Assembly: GCA_018241505.1 (NCBI GenBank)
Contig: JAFEDS010000010.1
Span: 372,001-436,000 of the forward strand
Source: Pseudomonadota bacterium
Lineage (GTDB): Bacteria; Pseudomonadota; Gammaproteobacteria; Steroidobacterales; Steroidobacteraceae
Direction of reading: 5' to 3'
Length of the DNA stretch: 64,000 nucleotides
In this document: positions 35,826 to 56,399 of the stretch, piece by piece
Numbering within the stretch: the first letter of the stretch is position 1
How the letters are laid out: each line of letters opens with the position of its first letter
Position numbers and translations under genes: made by a program
The notes under the pieces: model-generated
Databases searched by the model: none
Told to the model about the DNA's origin: nothing
Seen by the model: the letters and a program-made list of their open reading frames with translations, nothing else

Positions 35826-38086
35826 GGTTCAGCGATCCAAACTGGTTGTGGGCGGGACTGCTGGCGTGCGTGGCGCTCGTTCTGCTGTGGCGTCGATTTG
35901 ATGTTCGGCAGAAGGCCGCGCTCGCGAGCTTCATTGCTCCGCACCTGCATGGAAAATTGACGGGGTCCGTATCCGGATTCCGGCGAGGCATGCAGCGCGG
36001 TCTGCTCCTGTTGGCCGTAGTCGGTCTTTTCGGGGCCCTCGCCGGCCCCGAGTTGGGCTTTCACTGGGAAAAGATCAGGCGTCGCGGTAACGAAGTCGTG
36101 TTCGCGATCGACACGTCGCGCAGCATGTTGACACCGGATGTCAAACCCAACCGGTTGACGCGCGCCAAGCTGGCGATCGATGACATGGCGCGACAACTCG
36201 ACGGCGATGGGATCGGAATCGTGGCGTTCGCGGGCAACGCTTTTCTCGTCTGCCCACTGACACTCGACTACGCGGCGTTCCAACAGTCGCTCGATGCCGT
36301 CGACGTCAACACCATTCCCCTCGGCGGCACCAATATTTCCAGCGCGATCGCGGCTGCCCGCGACGCCCTGCGGCGTCGCCCTGGCAGCGATAAGATCCTG
36401 ATCCTGGTCACGGACGGCGAGAACCTGCAGGGCGATGTGTTGTCGGTGGCTCAGGAAGCAGCGAAACAGGAAGGACTGAAGATCTACACTGTAGGCATTG
36501 GCACGGCCGAAGGCGAGCTCATTCCCCTGCCAGGGGATCTCGGCGGCGGTTACGTCAGGGACGAGGCGGGTGAGTGGGTGAAATCCCACCTCGACGAAAG
36601 CGGACTGAAAGCCATCGCCGCCGCAACCGGCGGAACATACGTACACGTCGCCGGGCAGGGCGAAGACTTCGAGGCGTTCTTGCGTACTGTATTCGGCACG
36701 GTGTCAAAACACGATCTCGTGTATCGCCAGCAGAAGATCTACACGCAGCGGTATCAATGGCCGTTGGCGGCCTCTTTGATATTCCTGTTGGCGAGCTTGA
36801 TGGTGGGCACTCGCCGCACCGGCCGCCCCCGAGTGGCTGCTGCGACCTCCACGGTCGCCGCGTTGACCCTGATCATGGCGCTGGGCGCCCCTTCCCGCTC
36901 AGACAGCGCGGACCAGACCAACACGGTCGCTGGAGCGCGATCCACCTCCACCGCTCGGCCCGCCGCGCTGTCGCCCGCCACCGCCGCCACACCGTCGCCC
37001 GCGGCCGCGGCCGCATCACGACTCGCACCGCGGGCCGTGCCGGGTTCACCCCTCGCGGCATACAACGCCGGTACCTCGGCCTATCGAGCCGGGCAATTCG
37101 CGCAAGCGACACAGGCTTTCCAAACGTCCATCAACGCCTTCCCGGCAAGCGACGCGCGGCGCCTCGCGGATCAGCAGGACGCGTACTACAACCTCGGCAA
37201 TGCCCTGTACCGCGCGGGCCAGCAGGACGAGAAGTCCGCTCCGCAAAACGCGATTGCGAAGTGGACCGATGCAGTGAAGGCATACGAGACCGCCTTACAA
37301 CTTCGCCCGGACGATGCCGACAGCAAGTTCAACCGGGACTTTGTGAAGCGCAAAATCGATGCGCTTCAGCCACCCAGTGGCGGCAGTGGTGGTGGCGGCA
37401 GTGGTGGTGGCGGCAGTGGTGGTGGCGGCAGTGGCGGCGGCGGTGGGTCGGATGGCGGCTCCGGCAAAGGCGGCGGCAGCAACAGTGGCAACCAGGGCGG
37501 AGGGGGCGGCCAGGGCCAACCACCACCGGCAGGCCAAAACTCTCCGCAAAACCAACCTCCAGGGCAGCCGCCACAACAGCAGGCGCAAGGCCAACCGCCC
37601 CAGCAACCGCCTTCGCAGCCAAACCAGGGCCAATCGCCTGGCCAACAAGCGGCGCAAGGCCAGCCGCCCCCATCGCAACCGCAGAGCCAAGGGCCACCGC
37701 CCTCGCAAGGCCAGCAGCCACCCCAAAACCAACGCCTGGCGCAGGGCCAACCCCCGCCCTCGGCACCCCCGCCGCAAGGCCAACCGCCGCCGCAAGGCCA
37801 ACCGCCGCCGCAAGGCCAACCGCCGCCGCAGGGCCAGCCACCGCAGCAACAGCCAGTCGCGCCCGGCCAGCCCCAGGGTCAGTCGCCGCAGGAGCCCCCT
37901 CCCCCCCAAGGCGCAGGCGCCAACAGCCCGTCGGACGATAGTACCGGCGCGCCAGGCCAAATGAGCGTCGAAGAGGCAAACGCCCTCCTGAACTCCGCCA
38001 AGTCAGACGAGCACCACTCGCTGCTCGTGCCCTCAGGCCCGCGACAAGCCGATCTCTCGCCGGACAAGCCGTTCAAGAACTGGTGA
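35822..38086 (+). CDS. BatB/BatC fusion: VWA, TPR and very long Gly/Pro/Gln-rich tail
   Basis: A 754-residue membrane protein. GTG 35822 overlaps the batA stop. Two N-terminal TM helices, VWA domain (about 90-290) with MIDAS IDTSRSM near 97, a further TM near 322, an Ala/Thr/Pro linker, TPR-like helices (about 410-510; YNAGTSAYRAGQF, YYNLGNALYRAGQ), then a low-complexity segment (about 517-713) of Gly4Ser units followed by Pro-Gln-Gly repeats, and a conserved-looking tail (MSVEEANALLNSAKSDEHHSLL). In many genomes the VWA and TPR parts are separate batB and batC genes. Confidence 0.92.
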   Translation: MRFSDPNWLWAGLLACVALVLLWRRFDVRQKAALASFIAPHLHGKLTGSVSGFRRGMQRGLLLLAVVGLFGALAGPELGFHWEKIRRRGNEVVFAIDTSRSMLTPDVKPNRLTRAKLAIDDMARQLDGDGIGIVAFAGNAFLVCPLTLDYAAFQQSLDAVDVNTIPLGGTNISSAIAAARDALRRRPGSDKILILVTDGENLQGDVLSVAQEAAKQEGLKIYTVGIGTAEGELIPLPGDLGGGYVRDEAGEWVKSHLDESGLKAIAAATGGTYVHVAGQGEDFEAFLRTVFGTVSKHDLVYRQQKIYTQRYQWPLAASLIFLLASLMVGTRRTGRPRVAAATSTVAALTLIMALGAPSRSDSADQTNTVAGARSTSTARPAALSPATAATPSPAAAAASRLAPRAVPGSPLAAYNAGTSAYRAGQFAQATQAFQTSINAFPASDARRLADQQDAYYNLGNALYRAGQQDEKSAPQNAIAKWTDAVKAYETALQLRPDDADSKFNRDFVKRKIDALQPPSGGSGGGGSGGGGSGGGGSGGGGGSDGGSGKGGGSNSGNQGGGGGQGQPPPAGQNSPQNQPPGQPPQQQAQGQPPQQPPSQPNQGQSPGQQAAQGQPPPSQPQSQGPPPSQGQQPPQNQRLAQGQPPPSAPPPQGQPPPQGQPPPQGQPPPQGQPPQQQPVAPGQPQGQSPQEPPPPQGAGANSPSDDSTGAPGQMSVEEANALLNSAKSDEHHSLLVPSGPRQADLSPDKPFKNW
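37382..37441 (+). repeat. Four tandem 15-bp repeats encoding Gly-Ser-Gly3 units
   Basis: GGCAGTGGTGGTGGC is repeated exactly three times from 37382, with a fourth copy differing at two bases (37427-37441). It encodes a natural (GGGGS)n linker inside the VWA-TPR protein. Such exact repeats are prone to slippage and copy-number change between strains. Confidence 0.9.
37772..37840 (+). repeat. Tandem 18-bp repeats encoding Pro-Gln-Gly-Gln-Pro-Pro units
   Basis: CCGCAAGGCCAACCGCCG recurs at 37772, 37790 and 37808, with a variant at 37826 (CAAGGCCAA changed to CAGGGCCAG). It is the most regular part of the longer Pro/Gln/Gly-rich region of the VWA-TPR gene. Confidence 0.85.
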
Positions 38087-39867
38087 TGCGAACCCGGCTC
38101 ACTCATTGGAGCAAGCTGCTCGTTCTTTTACTGGGCCTGCTGGCTCCCATCGCCCCAGTACACGCAGCGGACTTGTCCCTGGCCTACGAGAGCATCGAGC
38201 CCTCCAGCATCCGGATCGGCGATACAGCCATCATCCGCGTAACGAGTCTGGATGGTTACCTGGACAACGTGCCGCTACCCAGTGTCACCGGCCTGAAATT
38301 CGAGTTTGTCGCACACCAACAGGGATTCGAGTTCGTGGCTGGCAAACCCATCCCCTCGTCCTACGTCTACATCCGGGTGACGCCGGAGTTTGTGGGCGTG
38401 TTCACAATTCCCGGTCTCACGCCAAAATCGCGCACGCTCGGGCTCGAAGTCGTCGCCGCCGACAACCCCAACCCATCAGCATGGCGCACCTACAAACAAA
38501 ACCCGCCGCCCCCAGCGCCGAAAGCAACGGCCTCGCTGCCGAAAGGCGCTGAGCTGAAGGCCGGCGGCGCCGCTTTCGTCAGATTGGTAGTTCCATCCCG
38601 CTCCATCTATGTCGGAGAAAGCGTACCAGTCGACATTGAAGTGGGTTTGCGTCCGGGAATCGTGACATCTCTGAACGGCCTGCCAACACTCACCGGCGGC
38701 GACTTCACGCTCAACAATCTTTCCAGGCAACCAGAACGCCGCGACGAGGTCATCGGCGGCAATCCATTCACGCTGATGACCTGGCACAGTGTGCTGGCAG
38801 CCGTAAAACCAGGCGACTTTTCCCTGTCCGTCGCAGCCCCGCTCAGTGTCAAAATAAACACGTTATCGCGGGAAGACATATCCATTGCGGCGCAGATGGG
38901 AGCCCCGTTCCTGCAGGGTCTGTACAACGGCATCAAGCCCAAGGACCTCACCATCGCGAGTCCGCCATCTGACGTGAGAGTATTGTCATTGCCGACGGAA
39001 GGACGCCCCAAGGATTTCACGGGCGCCGTCGGTGGGTTCCAGGTAGCCAGCGAGATATCGCCGGCGCATCCCGCGGCGGGTGATCCATTGACTCTGCGGC
39101 TCCGGGTCAGCGGCGCGGGCAATTTCGATCGCGTCGATTCACCGATGTTGAGCGAGCTCGAGCATTGGAAGACCTACCCTCCCAGATCGTCCTTCAAAAA
39201 GGATGATGCTGTCGGATACAAGGGCGAGAAGGTGTTTGAGCAGCCGCTGATTACAGCTCAAACGGGCGACCAGACGATTCCCGGCCTCGACTTCAGCTAC
39301 TTCAATCCCAACACAAAGCGGTATGAGCGCGCACAGACACAGCCAATCAAGATCACCATTGGCACATCACTAGCGGACCGGTCCGGCGGCTCAGTCGACG
39401 CTGCGGCACTCACCCGTGGACTGCGCCCCGACCACCCGAGATCAAACAGCTTGGTTGGCGACCTCGAGCCACTCTACTTCCAGCGCACATTCCTCGCTGT
39501 CCCCACCGCCCTCGCATTGATTCTGGCCGGAATTCTGTTACTCGTGCGCCCGAGTCAAGCTCGCGTCAATTCGAAGGTCACGGCGCGCGCACTCGCCAAA
39601 CTGGATGCCGCTGCACGAAGTGGCAACCCTGCTGCTTTTTTCGAGGCCGCACGGAACACATTGGTTCAGACATTCGCGGCCCGATGGAACTTACCGCCGG
39701 ATCGGGTCACTGCCGAAGAAATTCGCGCGCAACTCGGCCCTGGCGCTGAGGATTTGGAACGGCTATGGGCGCTTGCAGACGAGGCAAAGTATTCGCGGTA
39801 TGAGCCCGGCAGCACGGATTTCCAGCATTGGGTGACACTGGTCCACGGGCAGGTCAAAGAATCGTGA
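38086..39867 (+). CDS. batD: BatD-type oxygen tolerance protein
   Basis: A 593-residue protein with signal peptide (ending APVHAADL), a long beta-rich periplasmic region built of Ig-like BatD domains (IGDTAIIRVTS, YVGESVPVDIEVGL, GDPLTLRLRVSG), one TM helix near 470 (TALALILAGILLLV), and a helical cytoplasmic tail. Length and layout match BatD. The ATG at 38086 overlaps the preceding TGA; a GTG one codon earlier is possible. Confidence 0.92.
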   Translation: MRTRLTHWSKLLVLLLGLLAPIAPVHAADLSLAYESIEPSSIRIGDTAIIRVTSLDGYLDNVPLPSVTGLKFEFVAHQQGFEFVAGKPIPSSYVYIRVTPEFVGVFTIPGLTPKSRTLGLEVVAADNPNPSAWRTYKQNPPPPAPKATASLPKGAELKAGGAAFVRLVVPSRSIYVGESVPVDIEVGLRPGIVTSLNGLPTLTGGDFTLNNLSRQPERRDEVIGGNPFTLMTWHSVLAAVKPGDFSLSVAAPLSVKINTLSREDISIAAQMGAPFLQGLYNGIKPKDLTIASPPSDVRVLSLPTEGRPKDFTGAVGGFQVASEISPAHPAAGDPLTLRLRVSGAGNFDRVDSPMLSELEHWKTYPPRSSFKKDDAVGYKGEKVFEQPLITAQTGDQTIPGLDFSYFNPNTKRYERAQTQPIKITIGTSLADRSGGSVDAAALTRGLRPDHPRSNSLVGDLEPLYFQRTFLAVPTALALILAGILLLVRPSQARVNSKVTARALAKLDAAARSGNPAAFFEAARNTLVQTFAARWNLPPDRVTAEEIRAQLGPGAEDLERLWALADEAKYSRYEPGSTDFQHWVTLVHGQVKES

Positions 39868-40766
39868 TGCGCGCATCGATGACAACAGTGCTGGTGTTCG
39901 CCGCAGCGATTTGGGGCAATTGCGCGCTTGCGCAACAACAGCCGCATCACCATTCAAAGCCGAAAACACGGACACATCAGGCCCAAACACCGCAGCAGGC
40001 CCAGGCACCACAACCGGCGTCGTTAGCTGCGCCTGCACAGCCGCCACCCATACCGCAACCCACCTCGCTAACTGCGCCCGCACAGGTAGCACCAACGCAG
40101 TCCGCATCGGCACCCCCATCTCCAGCGCCCTCGGCGTCGCTACAGCCAGCGCCAACACTCGCCGCGTCGCCTAACCAGGCACATGCAGTGCATCCCTACT
40201 CGGCCGACACGCTCTACAACCTGGGCAACTCCTACGCCCGTGCCGGCAAACCAGGCCTCGCCATCCTCAACTACAAGCGCGCCGCGCTACTGGCGCCCAA
40301 CGACCCCGACATCAACGCAAATCTAGATTACGTCCGTGCCACCGCGAACGTCACAAGCGAACCCCAAACTCGCTTCACACGCGTAGCTCAACTGGTGAAC
40401 CCCACACAAGCAGCGTGGTTAGGTGTTCTCGGTATCGCTCTGCTCGGCGCGGCTCTGCTCACCAGCAAGGTCACAAGTCGCTACCGAGGCCTCCGAGCCA
40501 CCGGTATCCTGGTCGGCATCGGCCTGGCTTCTCTCACGGCATGCAACGCGGCATTGCTCTGGCCTCGAATGCGCGAGGCCGTCATCCTGATCAACCAAAC
40601 ACCTGCACGCGTATCCCCAGTCCCGATGGGCGACACGGCATTCCAACTCAGCGAAGCAGAGACGGTCACCATCGCGGCCGAGCACGAAGACTTCATGCTG
40701 ATCCGCACCCGCACCGGCCGCACAGGCTGGGTCGCCCGCGCAAATCTCGCCGCGGTGGTCCCCTAG
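39867..40766 (+). CDS. BatE-like TPR and SH3 domain membrane protein
   Basis: This 299-residue protein has a signal peptide (ending NCALAQ), a His/Pro/Gln/Ala-rich linker (25-110), a TPR pair (about 112-150; DTLYNLGNSYARAGKPGLAILNY), two TM helices (about 178-197 and 205-232) and a C-terminal SH3-like domain (LINQTPARVSP to GWVARANLAAV). This is the usual last member of bat operons. The ATG overlaps the batD stop (TGATG), so all seven operon genes are coupled. Confidence 0.9.
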   Translation: MRASMTTVLVFAAAIWGNCALAQQQPHHHSKPKTRTHQAQTPQQAQAPQPASLAAPAQPPPIPQPTSLTAPAQVAPTQSASAPPSPAPSASLQPAPTLAASPNQAHAVHPYSADTLYNLGNSYARAGKPGLAILNYKRAALLAPNDPDINANLDYVRATANVTSEPQTRFTRVAQLVNPTQAAWLGVLGIALLGAALLTSKVTSRYRGLRATGILVGIGLASLTACNAALLWPRMREAVILINQTPARVSPVPMGDTAFQLSEAETVTIAAEHEDFMLIRTRTGRTGWVARANLAAVVP

Positions 40767-41127: not shown

Positions 41128-41820
41128 TCACCGCTTGCGCCCCGCCACCTTCTTGACAGCCACCTGCTCCACCTTGCGCGCCGGCGACTCCAGATCCCCG
41201 TGCAGCGACATCAGCGACTCCATCAAACTGTCATCCGCGCTCGAGCAGATACCCAACACCTTCGCCTCGTCGCACCCTTCGGCAACATAGGCGTGCCCCA
41301 TGTTGCTATCCACATAGATGGATTCACCTGACTTCAGCACTACCGGATCATAAAACTCCGTGTGGACCGTGATGCTGCCTTCCAGCACATAGATGTATTC
41401 CTCGCCAGGATGGCGCACGAGGTCGCCAAACTCATCCAGGCTTTTCGCCCTGATGCGCGTCAGAATCGGAATCATCCGCTTCCGGCGCAACTCCGGACAC
41501 ATATAGTAGTAGTCGTAATTGCGAGTGTTGACGCGCACTGCATCCGCAACAACCCCGATGCTCCTGCGCGCGGTCACCGCAGGACCGGCATCGGGGCCGG
41601 CCACCGGGTCCGCGAACAACTCCGATAGCGAAATATTTAGGCGGTGGCTGACCTGCATCAGCTTGTCGTAAGTGAGCGTCAGCCGGTCGTGCTCGACTTT
41701 GGACAGCGTCGACAAAGGGATGTCGGTCCGCTCACTCATCTCTTTCAGGGTCCAGCCATTGCGAGCGCGCAACCCCCGCAAAAGGCTGCCGAGCGTGGGA
41801 TGGCGGGTTTTCATATCCAT
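41128..41820 (-). CDS. XRE family regulator with C-terminal cupin domain
   Basis: This 230-residue repressor-type protein has an XRE HTH (about 8-65, WTLKEMSERTDIPLSTLSKVEHDR) and a cupin domain (about 135-215, HPGEEYIYVLEGSITVHTEFYDPVVLKSGESIYVDS) that would bind a small ligand. XRE-cupin proteins often control amino-acid or peptide catabolism. It is divergent from the dipeptidase-TonB-dgcN operon across about 150 bp containing an inverted repeat, so it is its probable regulator. Start ATG 41820 is chosen over 41814 and an upstream in-frame codon; ribosome sites are weak for all. Confidence 0.9.
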   Translation of the reverse strand: MDMKTRHPTLGSLLRGLRARNGWTLKEMSERTDIPLSTLSKVEHDRLTLTYDKLMQVSHRLNISLSELFADPVAGPDAGPAVTARRSIGVVADAVRVNTRNYDYYYMCPELRRKRMIPILTRIRAKSLDEFGDLVRHPGEEYIYVLEGSITVHTEFYDPVVLKSGESIYVDSNMGHAYVAEGCDEAKVLGICSSADDSLMESLMSLHGDLESPARKVEQVAVKKVAGRKR

Positions 41821-41890
41821 GTGCGGATTAAGGATACAGGCCGCCCGGGTGGGGTCAACGCCAGGCGCAACCACTCAATTCGGTTGAATT

Positions 41891-41906
41891 TTTTCTGATT
41901 AGAAAA
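41891..41906. promoter_or_regulatory. Candidate operator of the XRE-cupin regulator
   Basis: TTTTCT-GATT-AGAAAA is a perfect 6-bp inverted repeat in an A/T-rich patch between the divergent regulator and dipeptidase genes. The same TTTTTTCT half recurs 27 bp further right (about 41916-41923). Position and symmetry fit an XRE-type operator controlling both directions. Confidence 0.5.
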
Positions 41907-41911
41907 TTTGT

Positions 41912-41939
41912 TTGCATTTTTTCTATTCAGGACTGTACT
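41912..41939 (+). promoter_or_regulatory. Possible sigma-70 promoter of the dipeptidase operon
   Basis: TTGCAT (41912-41917) and TGTACT (41934-41939) with a 16-bp spacer lie 33 bp before the dipeptidase ATG and directly beside the inverted repeat. The match to consensus is modest. Confidence 0.35.
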
Positions 41940-41972
41940 CTCCTGTGCAAGACAATAATAGTGGGGTGGAGA

Positions 41973-43142
41973 ATGTCCCAAGGTTTCTCCGTGAGCCGGC
42001 GCCGTTGCCTGCAAGGCCTGGGCGCCGCTGCGTCAATCCTGAGCCTGCCCGCCTTCGCCGCGGCAGCAGCCAAAGCAGACGCCGAGCACAAATACTCGAA
42101 GAAGGTCGTTGACCTCGTCGAGCGTTCACTTGTGATCGACATGCTGGGGCCGCTCAAGCTCGACTTCCGGCCGGAGGCCTACGCCGAACCGTTGAGCGAG
42201 CAGGAAGCCGCCATGTTCCGCACGTGCGGGATTACTGCATTCCACAACTCGATCGGAGTCGGTGGGCCGAGCGCCTACGACGATGCACTGCAGTTTATTG
42301 CCGCATGGAGTGGCTTCGCCGGCCGCAACAGCGAAGTGTTTTCGCTGGTGGGTACCGCCGCGGATCTCGATCGCGCCAAGGCGAAACACAAAATCGCCGT
42401 GATCATGGGACTACAGAATGCCGAACAGTTCCGCGAGCCCAAGGACGTCAAGGATTTCTACCAACTGGGGCTACGCTGCGCGCAGTTGACCTACAACTCG
42501 CAGAATCTCATCGGCAGCGGCTCCACGGATCGCATTGACGGCGGTGTCAGCGACTACGGTGTCGACATCATCAAAGCGATGAACGAAGTCGGGATGCTCA
42601 TTGACGTTTCGCACAGCGGTGATCGCACGACTCTCGACGCCATCGAGCTGTCGCCCCGTCCCATCGCTTTCACACATTCGAACTGCCGCGCCCTCAACAA
42701 CCATCCGCGCCTGAAGACCGACGAAGCTATCCAAAAGCTGGCGCGCAAAGGCGGCGTCATGGGTATCACCGGCGTCCGCAACTTCGTAAGGGATCGCGAA
42801 CCGACAACGGTCGAAGATGTGGTCGACCACATCGATCACGTCGTCAAGCTCGTAGGCATCGACCACGTGGGCATCGGTACCGACTCCGATCTGCTTGGCT
42901 ACGACAAGATGCAGCCCGATCAGTACGCGAAGCTCAAGGCAGCCTACAAGGCAAGCTATGCCTTCCGCGACAAGATCGACACCGACGGCTTCAATCATCC
43001 GAAAAAGATCTACGACCTGACCGACGCGCTCATCAGGCGCGGTTACAGCGACAACAACATCCAGGCGGTGCTCGGCGGAAACTTCCGCCGGCTGTTGGGG
43101 GAGTCCTGGACACCGCAACCACAGGCGGAGAAGAAATCATGA
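41973..43142 (+). CDS. Tat-exported membrane dipeptidase (M19) homologue with altered metal site
   Basis: This 389-residue protein has a twin-arginine-like signal (VSRRRCLQG) and an M19 fold: IDVSHSGDRT and FTHSNCRALNN carry the two beta-site His ligands, and VGIGTDSDL the conserved Asp. The usual N-terminal HxD metal motif (IDGHNDLP in renal dipeptidase) reads IDMLGPLK here, and the bridging Glu (GVEG) is Gln (GLQNA). M19 enzymes hydrolyse dipeptides, often with a C-terminal D-residue. ATG 41973 is favoured (GGAG just upstream) over GTG 41961. The stop overlaps the TonB receptor start. Confidence 0.85.
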   Translation: MSQGFSVSRRRCLQGLGAAASILSLPAFAAAAAKADAEHKYSKKVVDLVERSLVIDMLGPLKLDFRPEAYAEPLSEQEAAMFRTCGITAFHNSIGVGGPSAYDDALQFIAAWSGFAGRNSEVFSLVGTAADLDRAKAKHKIAVIMGLQNAEQFREPKDVKDFYQLGLRCAQLTYNSQNLIGSGSTDRIDGGVSDYGVDIIKAMNEVGMLIDVSHSGDRTTLDAIELSPRPIAFTHSNCRALNNHPRLKTDEAIQKLARKGGVMGITGVRNFVRDREPTTVEDVVDHIDHVVKLVGIDHVGIGTDSDLLGYDKMQPDQYAKLKAAYKASYAFRDKIDTDGFNHPKKIYDLTDALIRRGYSDNNIQAVLGGNFRRLLGESWTPQPQAEKKS

Positions 43143-45457
43143 GCACCACGATGCGACCGTGGGCCACGCGAGTTTCCACGTACGTGGCTCTGATCCTCTC
43201 GGCTTCTGCCCTCGCACAGGAAGGCGGCGAAGAACGCGCCGGCCCAGTCCGGCTCGAGGAAGTCGTTGTTACGGCGACCAAGCGCTCCGAAAACCTTCAA
43301 GATGTGGCGGTCGCGGTGACGGCTCTCACCTCGCAGGACATCGACGCGCGCGGGTTCACGAACTACAGCGATTTCGTGAACAGCGTACCCAACATGTACA
43401 TGGAGGATCTGGGGCCCGGCAAGACCCAGCTCTACATTCGCGGCCTGGTAGCGCAAGGCGGCTCTGGATTCCCGGTGGCCACCTACTTTGGCGAAGCGGT
43501 AACCAGCCTGCTCACCAACAACGGCGGGTTCGCAAACCTGCGGCTCGTCGATATCGATCGAATCGAAATCCTGCGCGGACCGCAAGGGACACTGTTCGGC
43601 GCCAACTCCCTGGCCGGCGTGCTGCGCGTAGTACCCAATGCTCCAAACCTGAACAACTTCCAGGTCGATGCCGCCGCGAGCGGTTGGTCGACGGCTGAGT
43701 CAGGCGGCGGCAGCGAGCACTTCGAAGGCGTCATCAATCTGCCGATCGTCAGCGGCAAGCTCGGTGCCCGGCTGGTCGCATACCAGGATCACCTTGCGGG
43801 CTACATCGACAATGTAGTGCCCGCCGCGCCCGCTAACGACTATAGCAGCGCATTCGGAGCCCCTCCCGGCCTGTTGGTGATACCCGGACACGATGCTTTT
43901 ACCCGCAAGGACATCAACTCCCAGGATATCTGGGGCGTGCGCGGCGCCGTCACCTGGAAGCCGACGGATGCTTTGCACATTGATGCCAGTTACGCTGCCC
44001 AGGAAGTCCGGCAGAACTCACAGTCAGGCACGCAGCCCCGCTTTGGCGACTATGTCGTCCAACGATCGCTGGATCTGTACTCCCGCGGCGAAGATATGGA
44101 GCAGGAGCGTATTGGCCAGCTCGTCGTCGGTTATGACTGGGAGAAGGTCTCAATCACTTCGGCTACCGGTTACACGCGCCTGTCGCGGTTCGAGAACCAG
44201 GATATCGGCTTCCTGGCCGCCGCCGCCGGCCTCGGCAACCAGCTCTGGCCTCTGCTCGATCGCAGCAAAGGCGAGTCCTTCACGGAGGAAGTACGCATAC
44301 AGTCACGCGGCACCGGCCCGCTGCAATGGCTCGCCGGCTACTTCTATACCAATAGCAACTTCGATCTGGGTCAGTACGTCCCGGACTATTCCTGCCCCGC
44401 ATGTCTGCCCGAAGTGCTGTTCCAGCAGCCCTTCGCCATCCGCACCATCGGCAACACCATCGGCGAGAAGCAGAAACAGCAGTCGATCTTCGCCCAGGTC
44501 AGCTATGACCTCACCTCACAGTTCACTGTGGGTGCCGGCGGCCGCTATCTGCGCGACTATCTCGAATCCTTCAGTCCCGCGGCCGAGGGCCTGCTGGTCG
44601 GCGGTTCGCAGCCTGCTTCGCCGCCGGTCGGCGGCCGAAGCTCCATCTTCAATCCCTCCGGCTATGTGCGCTTCAAGCCCAACGAACAGATGACCTACTA
44701 TTTTCAGGCAGCTCGTGGATTCCGCAGCGGTGCGGCCAACCAGGCGCTGGCGTACGATCCCAACGGGCCGTGCGGCGCGACCGCCGCAGCCGACGGTGTA
44801 GGGCCTCTGACGGATCCGGATACTTTGTGGACCTACGAGCTCGGACTGAAATCAACGTGGCTGGACAAACGGATCGCGGCCAACCTGGCCGTCTTCCATC
44901 AGAGCTGGAAAGGAGTGCAGCTCAATGCAACCCAACCTTGCGGCTTCAACGGCGCGGTCAACGGCGGCGATGCCAAAGGCAACGGTGCTGAGCTCGAGAT
45001 GACTGCGCAGCTCACCAAGGCTGTGAGTGCCAACCTGACCGCATCGTATGTCTACAACGAATTCGACAGTGTCAGACCCAATGTCGGCTACGTGGATGGC
45101 GAGCGCGTACCAGGTGCCCCGGAGGAGAATGCGAGCGCCGGACTTCAATATAATTTCGCGCTGAATCCAGCATGGAGCGGCTACGCCCGCGCCGATTATT
45201 CGTATGTGGGCAATGTGCACTATGTGTTCGGGTTGGGCACAGCCTCGACCTCGTACGTGCAAGGTGGTTTCGGACAGGCAAATCTCCGTCTCCAGCTCCA
45301 GCATCAGCAATTGGGGTTTGAGCTCTTTGCTCGAAATCTAACGAACAAGCGCGCCGCGGAGGCGACTGGCGATCCGACGCAGGGCGGCTTCACATACATG
45401 ATTCGGCCGCGTGAGGTGGGAGTCGAGGTGCGCTACTCGTTTGACAAGCCGATGTAG
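43139..45457 (+). CDS. TonB-dependent outer-membrane receptor
   Basis: This 772-residue receptor has a signal peptide (ending SASALAQ), TonB-box-like LEEVVVTATKR, plug motifs (IEILRGPQGTLFGANSLAG) and a barrel ending in VEVRYSF. ATG 43139 overlaps the dipeptidase stop. The neighbouring dipeptidase, DgcN and YkvI-type genes suggest import of a peptide or D-amino-acid conjugate rather than iron. Within the same general TBDR class as the receptor at 2336-4609, but not a close copy. Confidence 0.93.
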   Translation: MSTTMRPWATRVSTYVALILSASALAQEGGEERAGPVRLEEVVVTATKRSENLQDVAVAVTALTSQDIDARGFTNYSDFVNSVPNMYMEDLGPGKTQLYIRGLVAQGGSGFPVATYFGEAVTSLLTNNGGFANLRLVDIDRIEILRGPQGTLFGANSLAGVLRVVPNAPNLNNFQVDAAASGWSTAESGGGSEHFEGVINLPIVSGKLGARLVAYQDHLAGYIDNVVPAAPANDYSSAFGAPPGLLVIPGHDAFTRKDINSQDIWGVRGAVTWKPTDALHIDASYAAQEVRQNSQSGTQPRFGDYVVQRSLDLYSRGEDMEQERIGQLVVGYDWEKVSITSATGYTRLSRFENQDIGFLAAAAGLGNQLWPLLDRSKGESFTEEVRIQSRGTGPLQWLAGYFYTNSNFDLGQYVPDYSCPACLPEVLFQQPFAIRTIGNTIGEKQKQQSIFAQVSYDLTSQFTVGAGGRYLRDYLESFSPAAEGLLVGGSQPASPPVGGRSSIFNPSGYVRFKPNEQMTYYFQAARGFRSGAANQALAYDPNGPCGATAAADGVGPLTDPDTLWTYELGLKSTWLDKRIAANLAVFHQSWKGVQLNATQPCGFNGAVNGGDAKGNGAELEMTAQLTKAVSANLTASYVYNEFDSVRPNVGYVDGERVPGAPEENASAGLQYNFALNPAWSGYARADYSYVGNVHYVFGLGTASTSYVQGGFGQANLRLQLQHQQLGFELFARNLTNKRAAEATGDPTQGGFTYMIRPREVGVEVRYSFDKPM

Positions 45458-45458
45458 C

Positions 45459-46469
45459 ATGCTCGAATTGCCCTTTCCTTATCTCGTGTTCCTCGGGGAC
45501 ACGCAGGAGCCTCTGTTTGCCAAGACAGCGTTCGGATTGCGCGACTGGGCGCCCGAACGCTGCATCGGCGAGTGGTCGTGTGGCCATACCGCAGTGACCA
45601 CCGGGTTGCCGCGAGTCTCGCCGCGTGAGGCACGAGACCGTGGTGCACGCAGCCTCGTCATCGGCGTGGCCAACTATGGGGGCATCATCCAGGAGAATTG
45701 GATTCCAACCCTGCTCGAAGCGCTGGAAGCAGGCCTCGATGTCATTGGCGGAATGCATGCCAGGCTCCAGGATATCGAGCCGCTGAAAACAGCGGCGGCT
45801 CGCCTCGGACGGCGACTGATCGACGTTCGCGTACCTCCAGCCAACATTCCGGTTGCGAGCGGCCGCAAGCGCACAGGAAAGCGCCTCCTGACCGTCGGTA
45901 CGGACTGCGCGCTGGGCAAAAAATACAGTGCACTGGCCATCACCCGCGCTTTCAAGGACCGCGGCGTGGAAGCCGACTTTCGCGCCACGGGACAGACCGG
46001 AATCCTCATCTGCGGTCGCGGAATTCCCATGGACGCCGTGGTGTCGGACTTCGAAGCGGGAGCCGCGGAAATGCTCACTCCCGACAGCCCGCCGCAGCAT
46101 TGGGATGTCATTGAAGGACAGGGATCGTTGTTTCATCCCTCCTATGCCGCCGTCTCTCTGGGCCTTCTGCATGGCAGTCAGCCGGATGTGATCGTGGTGT
46201 GTCACCAGGCTGGCCGCACCCGCATCCTGGGAAAATCCGACTATCTCCTACCTTCCCTGGAAGACACGATTGATCTCAATCTGCGGCTCGGAAGGCGCAC
46301 CAATCCAGGCATCCGCTGTGCCGGCGTGTCATTGAATACCTCCCAGCTCGACGACGCAGCGGCGCGCGATCTGTTGGCCATGCAATCCCAGCGGTTGGGA
46401 ATGCCGGTCGCCGACCCCATCCGCGGTGGTGCGGAATTTGAACAGTTGGTAAACGCCTGCCTCGCTTGA
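45459..46469 (+). CDS. dgcN: DgcN family (DUF1611), D-glutamate N-acetyltransferase type
   Basis: A 336-residue protein of the DUF1611 family, which includes DgcN, reported to N-acetylate D-glutamate in a two-step route completed by the racemase DgcA. Visible motifs: GLRDWAPERCIGE near the start, a P-loop-like VGTDCALGKKYSA (about 150), FRATGQTGILI and EGQGSLFHPSYAAVSLGLL. ATG 45459 is 1 bp after the receptor stop; an upstream in-frame start would extend into the receptor. No dgcA gene is present in the window. Family assignment is good; the exact substrate here is inference. Confidence 0.85.
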   Translation: MLELPFPYLVFLGDTQEPLFAKTAFGLRDWAPERCIGEWSCGHTAVTTGLPRVSPREARDRGARSLVIGVANYGGIIQENWIPTLLEALEAGLDVIGGMHARLQDIEPLKTAAARLGRRLIDVRVPPANIPVASGRKRTGKRLLTVGTDCALGKKYSALAITRAFKDRGVEADFRATGQTGILICGRGIPMDAVVSDFEAGAAEMLTPDSPPQHWDVIEGQGSLFHPSYAAVSLGLLHGSQPDVIVVCHQAGRTRILGKSDYLLPSLEDTIDLNLRLGRRTNPGIRCAGVSLNTSQLDDAAARDLLAMQSQRLGMPVADPIRGGAEFEQLVNACLA

Positions 46470-46480
46470 GGGTCCTGCGC

Positions 46481-48388
46481 ATGTTGCGAAAACTGTTGCT
46501 CGGTTGCGTGGCACTCGGTGCCTCTCTCGCTCACGCACAAACACCCCTGACCGCCGAAGATGCGAATGCCTGGCTCGATGGCTACATGCCATACGCCCTG
46601 CACACCGGCGACATCGCGGGTGCTGTAGTTGCCATTGTGAAAGACGGAAACGTGCTGACAGAGCGCGGCTATGGCTACAGCGATGTGGAGAAGCAGACTC
46701 CGGTCGATCCCAAGAAGACCCTGTTCCGTCCCGGATCGGTTTCCAAGCTGTTCACCTGGACGGCCGTCATGCAGCTCGTCGAGCAGGGCAAGATCGATCT
46801 CGACGCCGACATCAATCAGTACCTCGACTTCAAGATCCCGGCACGCGACGGCCAGCCCGTCACTATGCGCAACCTCATGCAGCACACGGCCGGATTCGAA
46901 GAGCAAGCCAAGGGCATCCTGACGGACGATCCCAAATCCGCCGGATTCGAGGCACTGCTGAAGGCCTGGATACCCACCAGGGTGTTTGCGCCCGGCACCA
47001 CTCCCTCGTACTCCAACTACGGTGCGTCGTTGGCCGGCTACATAGTGCAACGGCTGTCGGGTGAGTCGTTCGACTCCTACATCGAGAAACACATTTTCGC
47101 ACCGCTCGATATGCCGCTCTCGAGCTTTCGCCAACCCTTACCCGCCAATCTCCAACCGTTCATGTCAAAGGGTTATCCGCGCGCCTCGCAGGATGCGAAG
47201 CCGTACGAAATTGTCGGCCCCGCGCCCGCCGGGTCGCTCGCGGCCCCCGCCGAGGACATGGCTCATTTCATGATTGCCCACCTGCAGGACGGCGAATACC
47301 AGGGGCGCAGAATTCTGAGCGCCGCCACCGCGCGGCAGATGCACAACAGTCCATTGACCCTGCTGCCGCCTCTCAATCGGATGGAGCTCGGCTTCTTCGA
47401 GACCAACATCAACGGCCACGAGGTCATCGGCCACCTCGGGGATACCGAGTATTTCCACACGTCCCTGCATCTATTTCTGCACGACGGAGTGGGCTTTTAC
47501 GTGTCGTTCAACAGCCTGGGCAAGGACGGCGCGGCCGGCAGCCTGCGCGGCGCATTGTTCACTGACTTTGCCGATCGCTATTTCCCGGGCAAGGTGCCCG
47601 ATACCCGGGTCGACGCCAAAACAGCCGCGGCGCATGCGGCGCTCCTGGCCGGAAACTGGGTGAATTCGCGCAGCTCCCAATCGAGCTTCCTGGCCGCCCT
47701 CGACCTCTTCGGCCAAACACAGCTCAGTGTCAACGCCAAAGGGGAGTTGGTGACGCCGCCGTTTCCAGGTTTGAACGGCGAACCCCGCCATTGGATCGAG
47801 TACGAGCCGTTTGTCTGGCTCGATCGTGATTCGCACGAGCGGCTGGCCGCCAAAGTCGTGGACGGCAATGCCGTGCGCTTCAGTATCGACGAGCTATCGC
47901 CCTTCATAGTCTTCGACCGCGCGCCTTGGTATCAAAACGCCGCCTGGCTGCGCCCGGCGTTCATCTTCAGCGCGACTGCACTGTTGCTCACCGCTATCTT
48001 CTGGCCTATAACGGCAATTGTGCGCAAGAAGTATGGTGCAGCCCTGACGTTGGACGCTCCGTCAACCCGCGCGTACCGCCAAAGCAAGATCGCCGCGGTT
48101 GCCATCACCGTGGCCATCGCGGCATGGATGACTACGGTCGGATTGATGCTCGCTGACTACAACAAGCTCACATCGAACTTCGATCCGGTCGTGTACCTCA
48201 CGCAGGCGCTGGGCATCCTTGCTTTCATTGGCGGATTTGTTCTCATCCTGCTCAACTTGCGGGCCGTCTGGAGCGGTCAGCGCCGCTGGCCTGCCAAAAC
48301 CTGGAGTGTCGTGCTGACACTGTCAGGATTCTTCATCCTGTGGGTGGGCTTCGCCTTCAAGCTCATCCGCCTCGGAGCGAATTACTAA
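46481..48388 (+). CDS. Class-C beta-lactamase-like serine hydrolase with C-terminal membrane helices
   Basis: This 635-residue protein has a signal peptide (1-19, ending LAHA) and a serine hydrolase domain with SxxK (Ser86-Val-Ser-Lys89) and YSN (PSYSNYG). A linker domain follows, then about four TM helices in the last 160 residues. The active site faces the periplasm. Relatives include D-aminopeptidases, esterases and penicillin-binding-like peptidases, so cleavage of a D-amino-acid peptide is plausible. ATG 46481 has GAGGG upstream; a TTG at 46466 overlapping the dgcN stop is possible. Confidence 0.9.
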   Translation: MLRKLLLGCVALGASLAHAQTPLTAEDANAWLDGYMPYALHTGDIAGAVVAIVKDGNVLTERGYGYSDVEKQTPVDPKKTLFRPGSVSKLFTWTAVMQLVEQGKIDLDADINQYLDFKIPARDGQPVTMRNLMQHTAGFEEQAKGILTDDPKSAGFEALLKAWIPTRVFAPGTTPSYSNYGASLAGYIVQRLSGESFDSYIEKHIFAPLDMPLSSFRQPLPANLQPFMSKGYPRASQDAKPYEIVGPAPAGSLAAPAEDMAHFMIAHLQDGEYQGRRILSAATARQMHNSPLTLLPPLNRMELGFFETNINGHEVIGHLGDTEYFHTSLHLFLHDGVGFYVSFNSLGKDGAAGSLRGALFTDFADRYFPGKVPDTRVDAKTAAAHAALLAGNWVNSRSSQSSFLAALDLFGQTQLSVNAKGELVTPPFPGLNGEPRHWIEYEPFVWLDRDSHERLAAKVVDGNAVRFSIDELSPFIVFDRAPWYQNAAWLRPAFIFSATALLLTAIFWPITAIVRKKYGAALTLDAPSTRAYRQSKIAAVAITVAIAAWMTTVGLMLADYNKLTSNFDPVVYLTQALGILAFIGGFVLILLNLRAVWSGQRRWPAKTWSVVLTLSGFFILWVGFAFKLIRLGANY

Positions 48389-48391
48389 AGC

Positions 48392-49543
48392 ATGTCGTCC
48401 CGATTCCAACGCTTCCTCCTGCCGGGTTTCGCATTCAAGGCCGTTGTCATTGGCGGCGGTTACGCCACCGGCCGTGAGCTGGCGGAATTTTTCATGCCGA
48501 GCGGACCGTGGGGGGGCGTCGCCGCCATGGCGCTCGCCACCGTGATCTGGGGCGCCGTCTGCGTGGCCACATTCCTGTTCGCGCGCCGCTATGGCGCCCT
48601 CGACTACCAGACTTTTGTCCGCGCCCTGCTGGGCCCTGCCGCCATTGTTTTTGAAATCGCCTACCTGCTGTTCGTGATCCTGATCCTGGCGGTCTTTGGC
48701 GCCGCGGCGGGGGCGGTGGGCCAAGCGACCCTGGGTGCACCCCCCATCGCCGGCACTCTGGCGCTCATGGGATCGATCGCGCTGGTGGTCGCATTCGGTA
48801 CGTCGTCCGTGGAACAACTATTCAAATACGTCTCATTCCTGTTGTACGGCGTCTACGTGTTGTTCGTGATCCTGTCCTTCACCCACTTCGGAGACAGGAT
48901 TGCGGCCGGCTTCGCAACGGCAGCGCCGACAGATGGCTGGATAGTGGGTGGTGTGACCTACGCGAGCTACAACATTGTCGGTGCGGTCGTGATATTGCCC
49001 GTGTTGCGCCATCTTCAGAGCGACCGGGACGCAGTCATTGCCGGTCTGATTGCCGCACCGCTGGCCATGCTGCCGGCCCTGATGTTCTTCTGCTGCATGA
49101 TCGCTTACTACCCCGGGATAGCAAACGAGACGCTGCCTTCAGACTTCCTGTTACAGCGACTCAACCTGCCGCTGTTTCATCTGCTGTTCCAACTGATGAT
49201 TTTTGCGGCTCTTCTGGAGAGCGGCACGGGCTCCGTCCACGCTATCAACGAGCGCATCAGCAACACCCTGCACAAACCGCTGAGCCGCCGGGCACGCTTG
49301 ACGATTGCGCTGTCGATCCTCGCCGGCTGCATGTTGCTGGCGCAGCGTTTCGGCCTCGTAACTCTGATCGCCAAGGGCTACCGCGCCTTGGCGATCGTTT
49401 TCCTCGTCGTCTACGTGCTGCCGCTGTTGACCGTAGGCGTCGCCCGGCTGAGGAGCCGGTTACCTGCTGTCGCGAACCTTGCTCAACAACCGCAGGATTT
49501 CCATGTACAGCCACACCAGCGTGACCAGCAGGCCGAACGCTGA
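48392..49543 (+). CDS. YkvI-type membrane transporter
   Basis: Inner-membrane protein of 383 residues with about ten TM helices and the YkvI-like start (FAFKAVVIGGGYATGRELAEFF), related to APC-fold amino acid transporters. It begins 3 bp after the serine hydrolase stop, closing the dipeptidase operon, and could carry the released amino acid. The last 28 codons overlap the convergent BI-1-like gene by 84 bp and are hydrophilic and Gln-rich. Confidence 0.82.
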   Translation: MSSRFQRFLLPGFAFKAVVIGGGYATGRELAEFFMPSGPWGGVAAMALATVIWGAVCVATFLFARRYGALDYQTFVRALLGPAAIVFEIAYLLFVILILAVFGAAAGAVGQATLGAPPIAGTLALMGSIALVVAFGTSSVEQLFKYVSFLLYGVYVLFVILSFTHFGDRIAAGFATAAPTDGWIVGGVTYASYNIVGAVVILPVLRHLQSDRDAVIAGLIAAPLAMLPALMFFCCMIAYYPGIANETLPSDFLLQRLNLPLFHLLFQLMIFAALLESGTGSVHAINERISNTLHKPLSRRARLTIALSILAGCMLLAQRFGLVTLIAKGYRALAIVFLVVYVLPLLTVGVARLRSRLPAVANLAQQPQDFHVQPHQRDQQAER

Positions 49544-50218
49544 GTACCACTCCATGTAACGGGGAGCACCCTGCTGGGCACCCGACTCAATCAAGTCAAA
49601 GTCGAGCACCAGATTCAGCGCGGCAATGCCGCAGATCACGAGCGACACGCCGATGCTCAGCGGACTCGACGAGTTCAGGAACGGCACATCAACGTGGAAA
49701 AAGCCGAGCACCATGCTGATGAGGTACAGCAAGGCAATCGCACCCGTCGCACCAATGACGATCGTCCTGAACCGCTGCGTCGCTTGAATCAGGCGCATCG
49801 AGTACGCGACCAGCAACACAGCAAGCACACCAAACGTCAGTCCGACCGCCTGAATGGCGATACCCGGATACTTCCGTTCCAGAATCGCCGAGATTCCACC
49901 TAGCGCCAACCCCTCGAGCCCAGCGTACGGAATCGCGAGATACGGCGCCGTAGTCGGCTTGAAGCTGATAACCAGCGCGGCAATGAGTCCGCCGACAATA
50001 CCAATCAGAATGGACGGTCCCACCACGGAAGCGTCGCCGGCCGAGAGGTACTGCGACCACGGGTAGAACGCACCCACCATCAGAACGACCAGCAGCAGGA
50101 ACGACTTGTTGATCGCTCCCTGGAGGGTCATCCGCTCGCCAACGGCCGCCCGCCGCGGCAGACCTGAAAACGTCTTCTCGTTCAGTCCCGGATTACCGGA
50201 TCGCACGGGAAGGGGCAT
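49460..50218 (-). CDS. Bax inhibitor-1/YccA-like membrane protein
   Basis: A 252-residue protein with about seven TM helices and the long N-terminal leader (NEKTFSGLPRRAAVGERMTLQGAINK) of bacterial BI-1/YccA relatives. Charged residues near the end (DLIESGAQQGAP) correspond to the family's conserved Asp. These proteins affect membrane proteolysis or calcium leak; the role is unsettled. ATG 50218 is preceded by AGGAG. Convergent overlap of 84 bp with the YkvI-type gene. Confidence 0.88.
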   Translation of the reverse strand: MPLPVRSGNPGLNEKTFSGLPRRAAVGERMTLQGAINKSFLLLVVLMVGAFYPWSQYLSAGDASVVGPSILIGIVGGLIAALVISFKPTTAPYLAIPYAGLEGLALGGISAILERKYPGIAIQAVGLTFGVLAVLLVAYSMRLIQATQRFRTIVIGATGAIALLYLISMVLGFFHVDVPFLNSSSPLSIGVSLVICGIAALNLVLDFDLIESGAQQGAPRYMEWYSAFGLLVTLVWLYMEILRLLSKVRDSR

Positions 50219-50342
50219 CGATGTCTCCTGCAAATAAGGGCGGGGCAATTGTAGTCCACCACGGCAGAACGTGTGGCTCCCTGCCCAGGATTCAAGGCCT
50301 TAGGGAGCTCTGAAACGTGACCTTGGCTGGCATACATTATGT

Positions 50343-56141: not shown

Positions 56142-56399
56142 ATGAAAGTGCTCATCGAAGTGGTCGGCTGGCTGGGCGCCGTCCTCATGCTCAGCGCCTA
56201 CGTACTGCTGACCCTGGGGCGCCTGAAATCGCAGTCACCCGTGTATCACTGGCTGAATATCGTTTCCGGGGCAGGTCTCATCTGCAACAGTGGCTACAAC
56301 GGCGCTTATCCATCCGTGATGATCAATGTTGTCTGGCTGATCATCGGTCTCTACGGCGTGTATTCACGTCCGGCCTCACAAGGTGTCGTAACGCAATGA
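56142..56399 (+). CDS. Small CBU_0592-type membrane protein
   Basis: An 85-residue protein with two or three TM helices (VGWLGAVLMLSAYVLLTLG, HWLNIVSGAGLICNS, VMINVVWLIIGLYGV). It matches the small family named after Coxiella CBU_0592; no function is known. Its TGA overlaps the GH92 start (ATGA), so the two are translated together. Confidence 0.85.
   Translation: MKVLIEVVGWLGAVLMLSAYVLLTLGRLKSQSPVYHWLNIVSGAGLICNSGYNGAYPSVMINVVWLIIGLYGVYSRPASQGVVTQ

What the first reader, a model, noticed from the sequence alone, without database searches (positions are those of the whole stretch)
41128..49543. Possible operon for uptake and breakdown of D-glutamate-containing peptides
Five plus-strand genes, each within 12 bp of or overlapping the next, encode a Tat-exported M19 dipeptidase homologue, TonB receptor, DgcN-type D-Glu N-acetyltransferase, class-C serine hydrolase and YkvI-type carrier, under a divergent XRE-cupin regulator. 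M19 and class-C hydrolases commonly act on D-residue peptides, and DgcN starts D-Glu catabolism. The combination with its own outer-membrane receptor is one I do not know as a described system. The racemase partner DgcA is absent here.
Basis: partly seen in the sequence, partly recalled or inferred. Interest (0 to 1): 0.72.

Follow-up and report, generated by a model that had tools for sequence, protein, structure and literature searches.

The report
Scavenging operon for D-glutamate peptides
Five neighbouring genes here look like a remodelled copy of a gene set, shared with many other bacteria, that imports and dismantles peptides containing mirror-image amino acids; I found no published description of the set, and one of its enzymes has lost most of its usual metal-binding residues.

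Summary
In detail: divergent XRE-cupin gene, then M19-like, TonB receptor, DgcN-like, class-C hydrolase and YkvI-type carrier, closely spaced. It is not chance: 60 full-flank loci around the closest DgcN relatives hold class-C 59, DgcA 57, TonB 51, YkvI 48, XRE-cupin 47, M19 28; 20 arbitrarily placed own-genome regions hold no class-C, DgcA, YkvI or M19, but TonB in 8. The nearest order (L098; L099 adds a POT gene) is XRE-cupin | M19-TonB-DgcN-ClassC-DgcA-YkvI-ClassC-M19, so the window copy seems to have lost dgcA and the tail. Its receptor looks exchanged: 24-30% to 13 related operons, 54% to one at a paralogous DgcN locus. The genome has ten DUF1611 genes, most of 125 family genomes; six have an MR_MLE (DgcA-like) neighbour. 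Corrections: the M19 protein lacks three of five canonical zinc ligands, so 'dipeptidase' is unproven; DgcN and the DgcA relatives tested miss NCBI's equivalog cut-offs. Best reading: a TonB-fed locus for peptides of D-Glu or other acidic D-residues; no substrate is shown. New variant of a known kind.

The parts
41128..41820 (-). XRE-family regulator with C-terminal cupin domain, divergent from the operon (longer ORF to 41874 possible)
   Evidence: Pfam HTH_19/HTH_3 and Cupin_2; XRE-cupin genes in 47 of 60 related full-flank loci; 70-72% identical to those of L099, L104, L113
41821..41972 (.). Divergent intergenic region, presumed promoter/operator; no operator shared across relatives was found
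   Evidence: dyad search over 52 regions, the window's included
41973..43142 (+). M19-like amidohydrolase with a Tat-type signal (by eye), subgroup 'type A': zinc ligands H20, D22 and E125 (human DPEP1 numbering, recalled) replaced by L, P and Q
   Evidence: Pfam M19 270 bits; ligand table; nearest solved structure 2i5g by sequence and fold
43139..45457 (+). TonB-dependent outer-membrane receptor, apparently exchanged relative to related operons
   Evidence: Pfam Plug and barrel; 54% and 51% to receptors at paralogous DgcN loci L039 and L035 (BLAST); 24-30% to receptors of 13 related operons (MAFFT)
45459..46469 (+). DgcN-like (DUF1611) protein, presumed N-acetyltransferase for D-Glu or another acidic D-amino acid
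   Evidence: DUF1611_N and DUF1611_C; NF041892 451.3 bits, cut-off 480; nearest solved structure 7xrj
46481..48388 (+). Class-C serine hydrolase, presumed exported (signal-like start by eye), with four hydrophobic C-terminal segments; motifs S86VSK, Y177SN, H318LG
   Evidence: Pfam Beta-lactamase; motifs and hydropathy; best of 143 solved matches is alkaline D-peptidase 4y7p, but many related hydrolases follow closely
48392..49543 (+). YkvI-type inner-membrane carrier, predicted LeuT/APC-type fold
   Evidence: AlphaFold2 mean pLDDT 91; Foldseek top matches include MhsT, Nramp, AdiC, AgcS

Best explanation
The locus is an inducible scavenging operon for peptides that contain acidic D-amino acids, most likely D-glutamate from cell-wall stem peptides or similar material. 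Shown by sequence: the gene set, its conservation, family memberships, catalytic motifs of the class-C enzyme. Inferred: the receptor brings the peptide across the outer membrane with TonB; the class-C hydrolase and the Tat-type M19-like enzyme trim it in the periplasm; the YkvI-type carrier moves the released D-amino acid inward; DgcN N-acetylates it; a DgcA-like racemase, in this strain encoded only at other loci, turns N-acetyl-D-Glu into N-acetyl-L-Glu; the XRE-cupin protein senses a pathway metabolite. The window copy is a remodelled version of a widespread operon: dgcA and the downstream class-C/M19 pair appear lost and the receptor exchanged for one shared with other DgcN loci of the same genome, presumably retuning the locus to another peptide.
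For: Recurrent gene set in 60 full-flank loci against arbitrarily placed own-genome regions. dgcA between class-C and YkvI in L096, L098, L100, L108, L112, L131 and L171, and with a POT gene added in L099, all in the DgcN clade of the window, support 97/86. Partner enzymes with D-amino-acid chemistry: a D-aminoacylase / N-acyl-D-Glu deacylase homologue (one example tested) and DgcA as best profile in three of three racemase relatives tested. Carrier fold. Six MR_MLE genes within 5 kb of other DUF1611 genes of the genome. Receptor exchange. DgcN described as key gene of a racemisation route for acidic D-amino acids and their amides (passages of PMC12363236).
Against: DgcN and DgcA relatives score below NCBI equivalog cut-offs in three of three examples of each. 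The M19 protein lacks the canonical binuclear site. No dgcA in the operon, so use of a paralogue in trans is assumed. TonB receptors occur in 8 of 20 control regions of this genome, so the receptor link is weaker here than the rest. The class-C match to a D-peptidase is not specific. The 80 loci were picked by similarity to the window DgcN and are not independent. No substrate, induction or operon transcript is shown.
Confidence: 0.6

Rival explanations
1. The operon handles peptides of another D-amino acid (D-Asp, D-Asn, D-Gln or a non-acidic one), and these DgcN/DgcA relatives are sister enzymes with shifted substrate.
For: DgcN 446-456 bits against a cut-off of 480 and DgcA 357-383 against 400; ten diverged DUF1611 genes in one genome suggest different substrates.
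Against: The best profiles are still DgcN and DgcA by a wide margin (383 bits for DgcA against 243 for L-Ala-D/L-Glu epimerase in L075); the cut-offs are missed by about 4-11%.
Confidence: 0.2
2. The window copy is decaying: with dgcA and the tail gone it no longer supports growth, and DgcN here is a remnant.
For: dgcA absent in the window although present in 57 of 60 full-flank loci; tail class-C/M19 missing.
Against: All five genes are open and tightly spaced; the four other than the receptor are 61-76% identical to eight clade mates; class-C motifs intact; dgcA-like genes exist elsewhere and three more DUF1611 loci of this genome (L034, L035, L037) have no MR_MLE place within 5 kb.
Confidence: 0.08
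3. The genes serve own-wall remodelling or muropeptide recycling rather than feeding.
For: Class-C hydrolases and M19-like enzymes can act on wall peptides (general knowledge).
Against: An outer-membrane receptor and DgcN/DgcA fit import and breakdown; patchy presence in relatives (DUF1611 over the cut-off in 66 of 125 family genomes) and presence in Alpha- and Gammaproteobacteria fit a dispensable trait.
Confidence: 0.07
4. The locus degrades a particular secondary metabolite with D-Glu or D-MeAsp residues, such as a cyclic peptide.
For: A copy lies in Sphingosinicella microcystinivorans (L129); variable receptors suggest specific ligands.
Against: Present in many genera, for which I know no link to such compounds; no dedicated ring-opening enzyme was looked for.
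Confidence: 0.05

Closest known systems
DgcN-DgcA D-glutamate catabolic pathway (Yu et al. 2023, ISME J 17:537; paper not held; known here through passages of PMC12363236 and PMC10845958)
   Same: A DUF1611 N-acetyltransferase relative, in most related loci beside an MR_MLE racemase relative; these profiles are the best NCBIfam hits
   Different: Below equivalog cut-offs; embedded with its own TonB receptor, hydrolases, carrier and XRE-cupin regulator; dgcA missing in the window copy
TonB receptor beside a D-aminoacylase gene, proposed to take up N-acyl-D-amino acids (PMC3400609, passages seen)
   Same: Receptor next to a D-amino-acid-releasing amidohydrolase; 25 of 60 related loci have such a gene
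   Different: That note concerns a receptor and one enzyme gene in a gammaproteobacterium; the passages seen mention no DgcN, DgcA, M19 or class-C set, and the window copy itself has no D-aminoacylase gene
M19 (renal) dipeptidases, e.g. Sco3058 (3id7) and 2i5g of Pseudomonas aeruginosa
   Same: Fold and overall sequence; 2i5g shares the Gln at the bridging-Glu position in the alignment
   Different: The window type lacks H20, D22 and E125

Membership tests
DgcN (NCBIfam equivalog NF041892) | score at or above the curated cut-off of 480 bits | tested here: not met
   451.3 bits over positions 1-320 of 326
DgcN (NCBIfam equivalog NF041892) | full-length two-domain DUF1611 protein | tested here: met
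   DUF1611_N 75 bits and DUF1611_C 231.9 bits, both above cut-off
DgcN-DgcA pathway locus | dgcA beside dgcN | tested here: not met
   absent in the window; present within 8 kb in 57 of 60 related full-flank loci
DgcN-DgcA pathway locus | acetylation of D-Glu and racemisation of N-acetyl-D-Glu | not testable with these tools
   needs enzyme assays
M19 dipeptidase | M19 fold and sequence family | tested here: met
   Pfam 270 bits; model pLDDT 79 matches 2i5g with TM 0.72/0.85
M19 dipeptidase | binuclear zinc ligands H20, D22, E125, H198, H219 (DPEP1 numbering recalled) | tested here: not met
   L, P, Q, H, H in the window protein; the H198, H219, Arg and D288 positions are kept in 63 of 63 rows aligned, 62 of them distinct
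class-C (S12-type) serine hydrolase | SxxK, YxN and HxG/KTG motifs in order | tested here: met
   S86VSK, Y177SN, H318LG
class-C beta-lactamase (resistance enzyme) | score at the NCBIfam class C beta-lactamase cut-off of 415 bits | tested here: not met
   84.4 bits
TonB-dependent receptor | plug and beta-barrel domains | tested here: met
   the substrate was not testable
APC-superfamily carrier | LeuT-like fold | tested here: met
   Foldseek top matches MhsT, Nramp, AdiC, AgcS, E 1.6e-5 to about 1e-4, TM by query length 0.52-0.67 for the best ten; a distant match

The most novel reading that the evidence does not exclude
The operon is a modular D-amino-acid peptide utilisation system of Alpha- and Gammaproteobacteria in which the outer-membrane receptor is an exchangeable specificity cassette and the 'type A' M19 protein is a single-metal enzyme (only the second-site histidines kept, as in some deacetylases; recalled) with an activity not yet known for M19, for example release of an N-acyl or gamma-linked D-Glu.
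Probability: 0.3. Interest if true: 0.72.

Novelty: new variant of a known kind. Interest (0 to 1): 0.56.

Why it matters
Cell-wall fragments rich in D-amino acids are common and are thought to resist breakdown (general knowledge). A TonB-fed locus with a dedicated D-Glu route in many environmental genera would help explain how such bacteria use them, gives testable substrates for orphan receptors, and points to a recurrent M19 subgroup whose chemistry is unknown to me.

Tried and rejected
Considered and rejected. (1) Beta-lactamase reading of the class-C gene: 84 bits against a cut-off of 415. (2) Chance adjacency: speak against it. (3) Contaminant contig: the window region and the nine other DUF1611 regions have GC 0.600-0.624 (control regions 0.601-0.623) and tetranucleotide correlation 0.967-0.992 (control minimum 0.947), so they fit the genome within 0.001 of GC; a close relative as contaminant (estimate 5.67%) is not excluded. 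(4) Common operator: a dyad search over 52 divergent intergenic regions found at most 6 regions sharing a dyad, most of them from close relatives. (5) Absence of dgcA as an old subtype: on the DgcN tree the 19 dgcA-less rows are scattered (19 changes). Of the 12 such rows at the named loci, 7 have under 8 kb on a side and may lack dgcA only because the contig ends; 2 more (L130, L139) have it just beyond the 8-kb start-to-start limit.

Limits. L159 gave no DgcN gene call, and 19 of the remaining 79 lacked 8 kb on one side, so the counts use 60. The partner families were defined from the own-genome DUF1611 loci, so one search shows low background and is not an independent test; its 20 regions were placed by hand at round coordinates, not drawn at random. 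No such control was run in other genomes. Genes were called with a home-made caller trained on the window; it missed the DgcN gene in L078, L081 and L092, cut it short in L037 (the one row of 108 left out of the tree), and left out the BaxI gene beside the operon. In one search one of the 37 non-own DgcN places was left out (the second of a close pair in G008), and one of the 6 pairs rests on a partial match (G009:C74). Receptors are the nearest long TonB gene to DgcN, so a few may not belong to the operon. L075 and L109 are the same place, so one M19 and one DgcN sequence are counted twice. Literature: ten searches of an open-access subset; the primary DgcN paper was not held. Of PMC10845958, PMC12363236 and PMC3400609 I saw passages only.
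Full report
The window lies at 372001-436000 of contig C1 of a 7.88 Mb, 46-contig genome, completeness 93.9 and contamination 5.67. Its family includes a genome (G044) whose contig length, place and DgcN sequence equal those of Povalibacter uvarum DSM 26723, which NCBI puts in Steroidobacteraceae; the family name for the window is therefore inferred.

Observation. Searches confirm the six genes and their spacing. The operon reads XRE-cupin (minus strand) | M19-like, TonB receptor, DgcN-like, class-C serine hydrolase, YkvI-type carrier. The class-C protein has S86xxK, Y177SN and H318LG motifs and four C-terminal hydrophobic segments; its start looks like a signal peptide by eye. The carrier has no Pfam match; a confident model (mean pLDDT 91) matches amino-acid and related transporters of the LeuT fold, at moderate TM-scores.

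Conservation. Around the 80 best DgcN relatives in genome contigs the same partners recur. Of 79 loci with a called DgcN, 60 have 8 kb on both sides: class-C 59, DgcA 57, TonB 51, YkvI 48, XRE-cupin 47, M19 28, D-aminoacylase-like 25, POT 23. The commonest full order is class-C, DgcA, M19, TonB, DgcN, YkvI, class-C, M19 (7 of 79). Hosts include Steroidobacter, Peristeroidobacter, Rudaea, Dyella, Lysobacter, Luteimonas, Stenotrophomonas, Pseudoxanthomonas, Sphingomonas, Sphingopyxis, Sphingobium, Phenylobacterium and two Verrucomicrobiota bins. In 20 arbitrarily placed 20-kb regions of the own genome the same panel found TonB in 8, D-aminoacylase-like in 1, XRE-cupin in 1, and class-C, DgcA, YkvI and M19 in none; the ten DUF1611 loci of that genome hold TonB 10, class-C 8, D-aminoacylase-like 6, DgcA 6, XRE-cupin 4, M19 4, YkvI 3. 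TonB receptors are thus common throughout this genome and weigh less.

Relatives of the family. Of 60 family genomes, 26 (the own one included) have a DgcN-like gene at E 1e-20. In the 25 others, 40 M19 places and 36 of the 37 DgcN places form 6 pairs within 10 kb where 0.34 are expected; one pair rests on a partial DgcN match. The own genome carries ten DUF1611 genes, the most of 125 family genomes of at least 90% completeness; the next three hold five each.

Where dgcA went. On a tree of 107 DgcN proteins the window copy falls, with support 97/86, in a clade with L096, L098, L099, L100, L107, L108, L112, L131, L171 and others. In eight of these (L096, L098, L099, L100, L108, L112, L131, L171) the order is TonB-DgcN-ClassC-DgcA-YkvI, with a POT gene between DgcA and YkvI in L099; L107 has another order. 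The window has the same order with dgcA missing and 3 bp between class-C and YkvI. L098 and L099 also share the upstream M19 gene (76% identical) and continue with a second class-C and a second M19 gene, which the window lacks. Six of the 17 MR_MLE_C places of the genome lie within 5 kb of another DUF1611 gene; two of these six were tested and have DgcA as best profile (L038, L039). Racemisation in trans is therefore possible; it is not shown.

Receptor. In pairwise comparisons over the loci the receptor is the most variable part (median identity 35%, against 69% for DgcN, 64% type A M19, 61% YkvI, 61% XRE-cupin, 60% DgcA, 50% class-C). The window receptor is 24-30% identical to those of 13 related operons, while its other genes are mostly 60-76% (lower exceptions: XRE-cupin 39-53% in five of the 13, YkvI 41-44% in two, class-C 50-54% in four). 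By BLAST it is 54% and 51% identical to receptors at two paralogous DgcN loci of the same genome, L039 and L035, and at most about 30% to any other receptor listed. This fits a receptor exchange.

The M19 protein. An alignment of 63 M19 rows (62 distinct) from the loci shows two types. Type B, 36 rows, keeps Glu at the bridging position, 34 of them with the HxD motif too. Type A, 27 rows including the window's, has Gln there and no HxD. The two later His ligands, the Arg and the last Asp are kept in 63 of 63. Among the named loci type A is followed by TonB or DgcN in 20 of 25, type B is preceded by a class-C gene in 20 of 29, and 16 loci carry both. The nearest solved structure to type A is 2i5g, listed only as an amidohydrolase of Pseudomonas aeruginosa, which has the same Gln. 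A search for its locus tag, recalled as PA5396, found no paper. The zinc-ligand numbering is recalled. Loss of one metal site need not abolish activity, since single-metal deacetylases exist (recalled), but 'dipeptidase' should not be assumed.

DgcN and DgcA identity. The window DgcN scores 451 bits, two others 446 and 456, cut-off 480; three DgcA relatives score 357, 363 and 383, cut-off 400. They are sisters of the named enzymes rather than certified members. DgcN is described as the key gene of an irreversible racemisation route for acidic D-amino acids and their amides (PMC12363236, passages).

Literature. No paper describing this gene set was found in ten searches of the open-access library. 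PMC3400609 (passages) reports a TonB receptor gene beside a D-aminoacylase gene and suggests N-acyl-D-amino acids as substrate; this anticipates part of the idea.

Verdict. A recurrent, probably inducible gene set for D-residue peptides, of which the window holds a remodelled copy. Interpretation partly supported; new variant of a known kind.

Noticed in passing
whole genome G000 (window contig C1): Ten DUF1611 genes, the most of 125 family genomes (next five); 6 of the 10 neighbourhoods also hold a D-aminoacylase-like gene.
   Followed up: partly
window 49460-50248: A BaxI-type membrane protein gene on the minus strand (Pfam BaxI_1, 257 bits) overlaps the 3' end of the YkvI-type gene by 84 bp.
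   Followed up: no
L148 and L159: M19 type A gene calls of 1098 and 747 aa, which may be fusions with a neighbour or frame errors.
   Followed up: no
L120 and L151: Parts of the gene set appear in two Chthoniobacterales (Verrucomicrobiota) bins: horizontal transfer or mis-binning.
   Followed up: no
L129: A copy lies in Sphingosinicella microcystinivorans, named for breaking down a peptide that contains D-Glu (recalled); any link is untested.
   Followed up: no
G000 contigs C14:214875 and C17:268: Two MR_MLE places with identical scores, one at a contig end: probable assembly duplicate.
   Followed up: no
window 35990-40766: Genes that look like a Bat (von Willebrand A, TPR) cluster just upstream; only the last was searched, with weak TPR, SH3 and BatC matches below the cut-offs; the rest is by eye.
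   Followed up: no
window 56396-58594: A protein resembling GH92 alpha-mannosidases by recall of its N-terminal motif; not searched.
   Followed up: no
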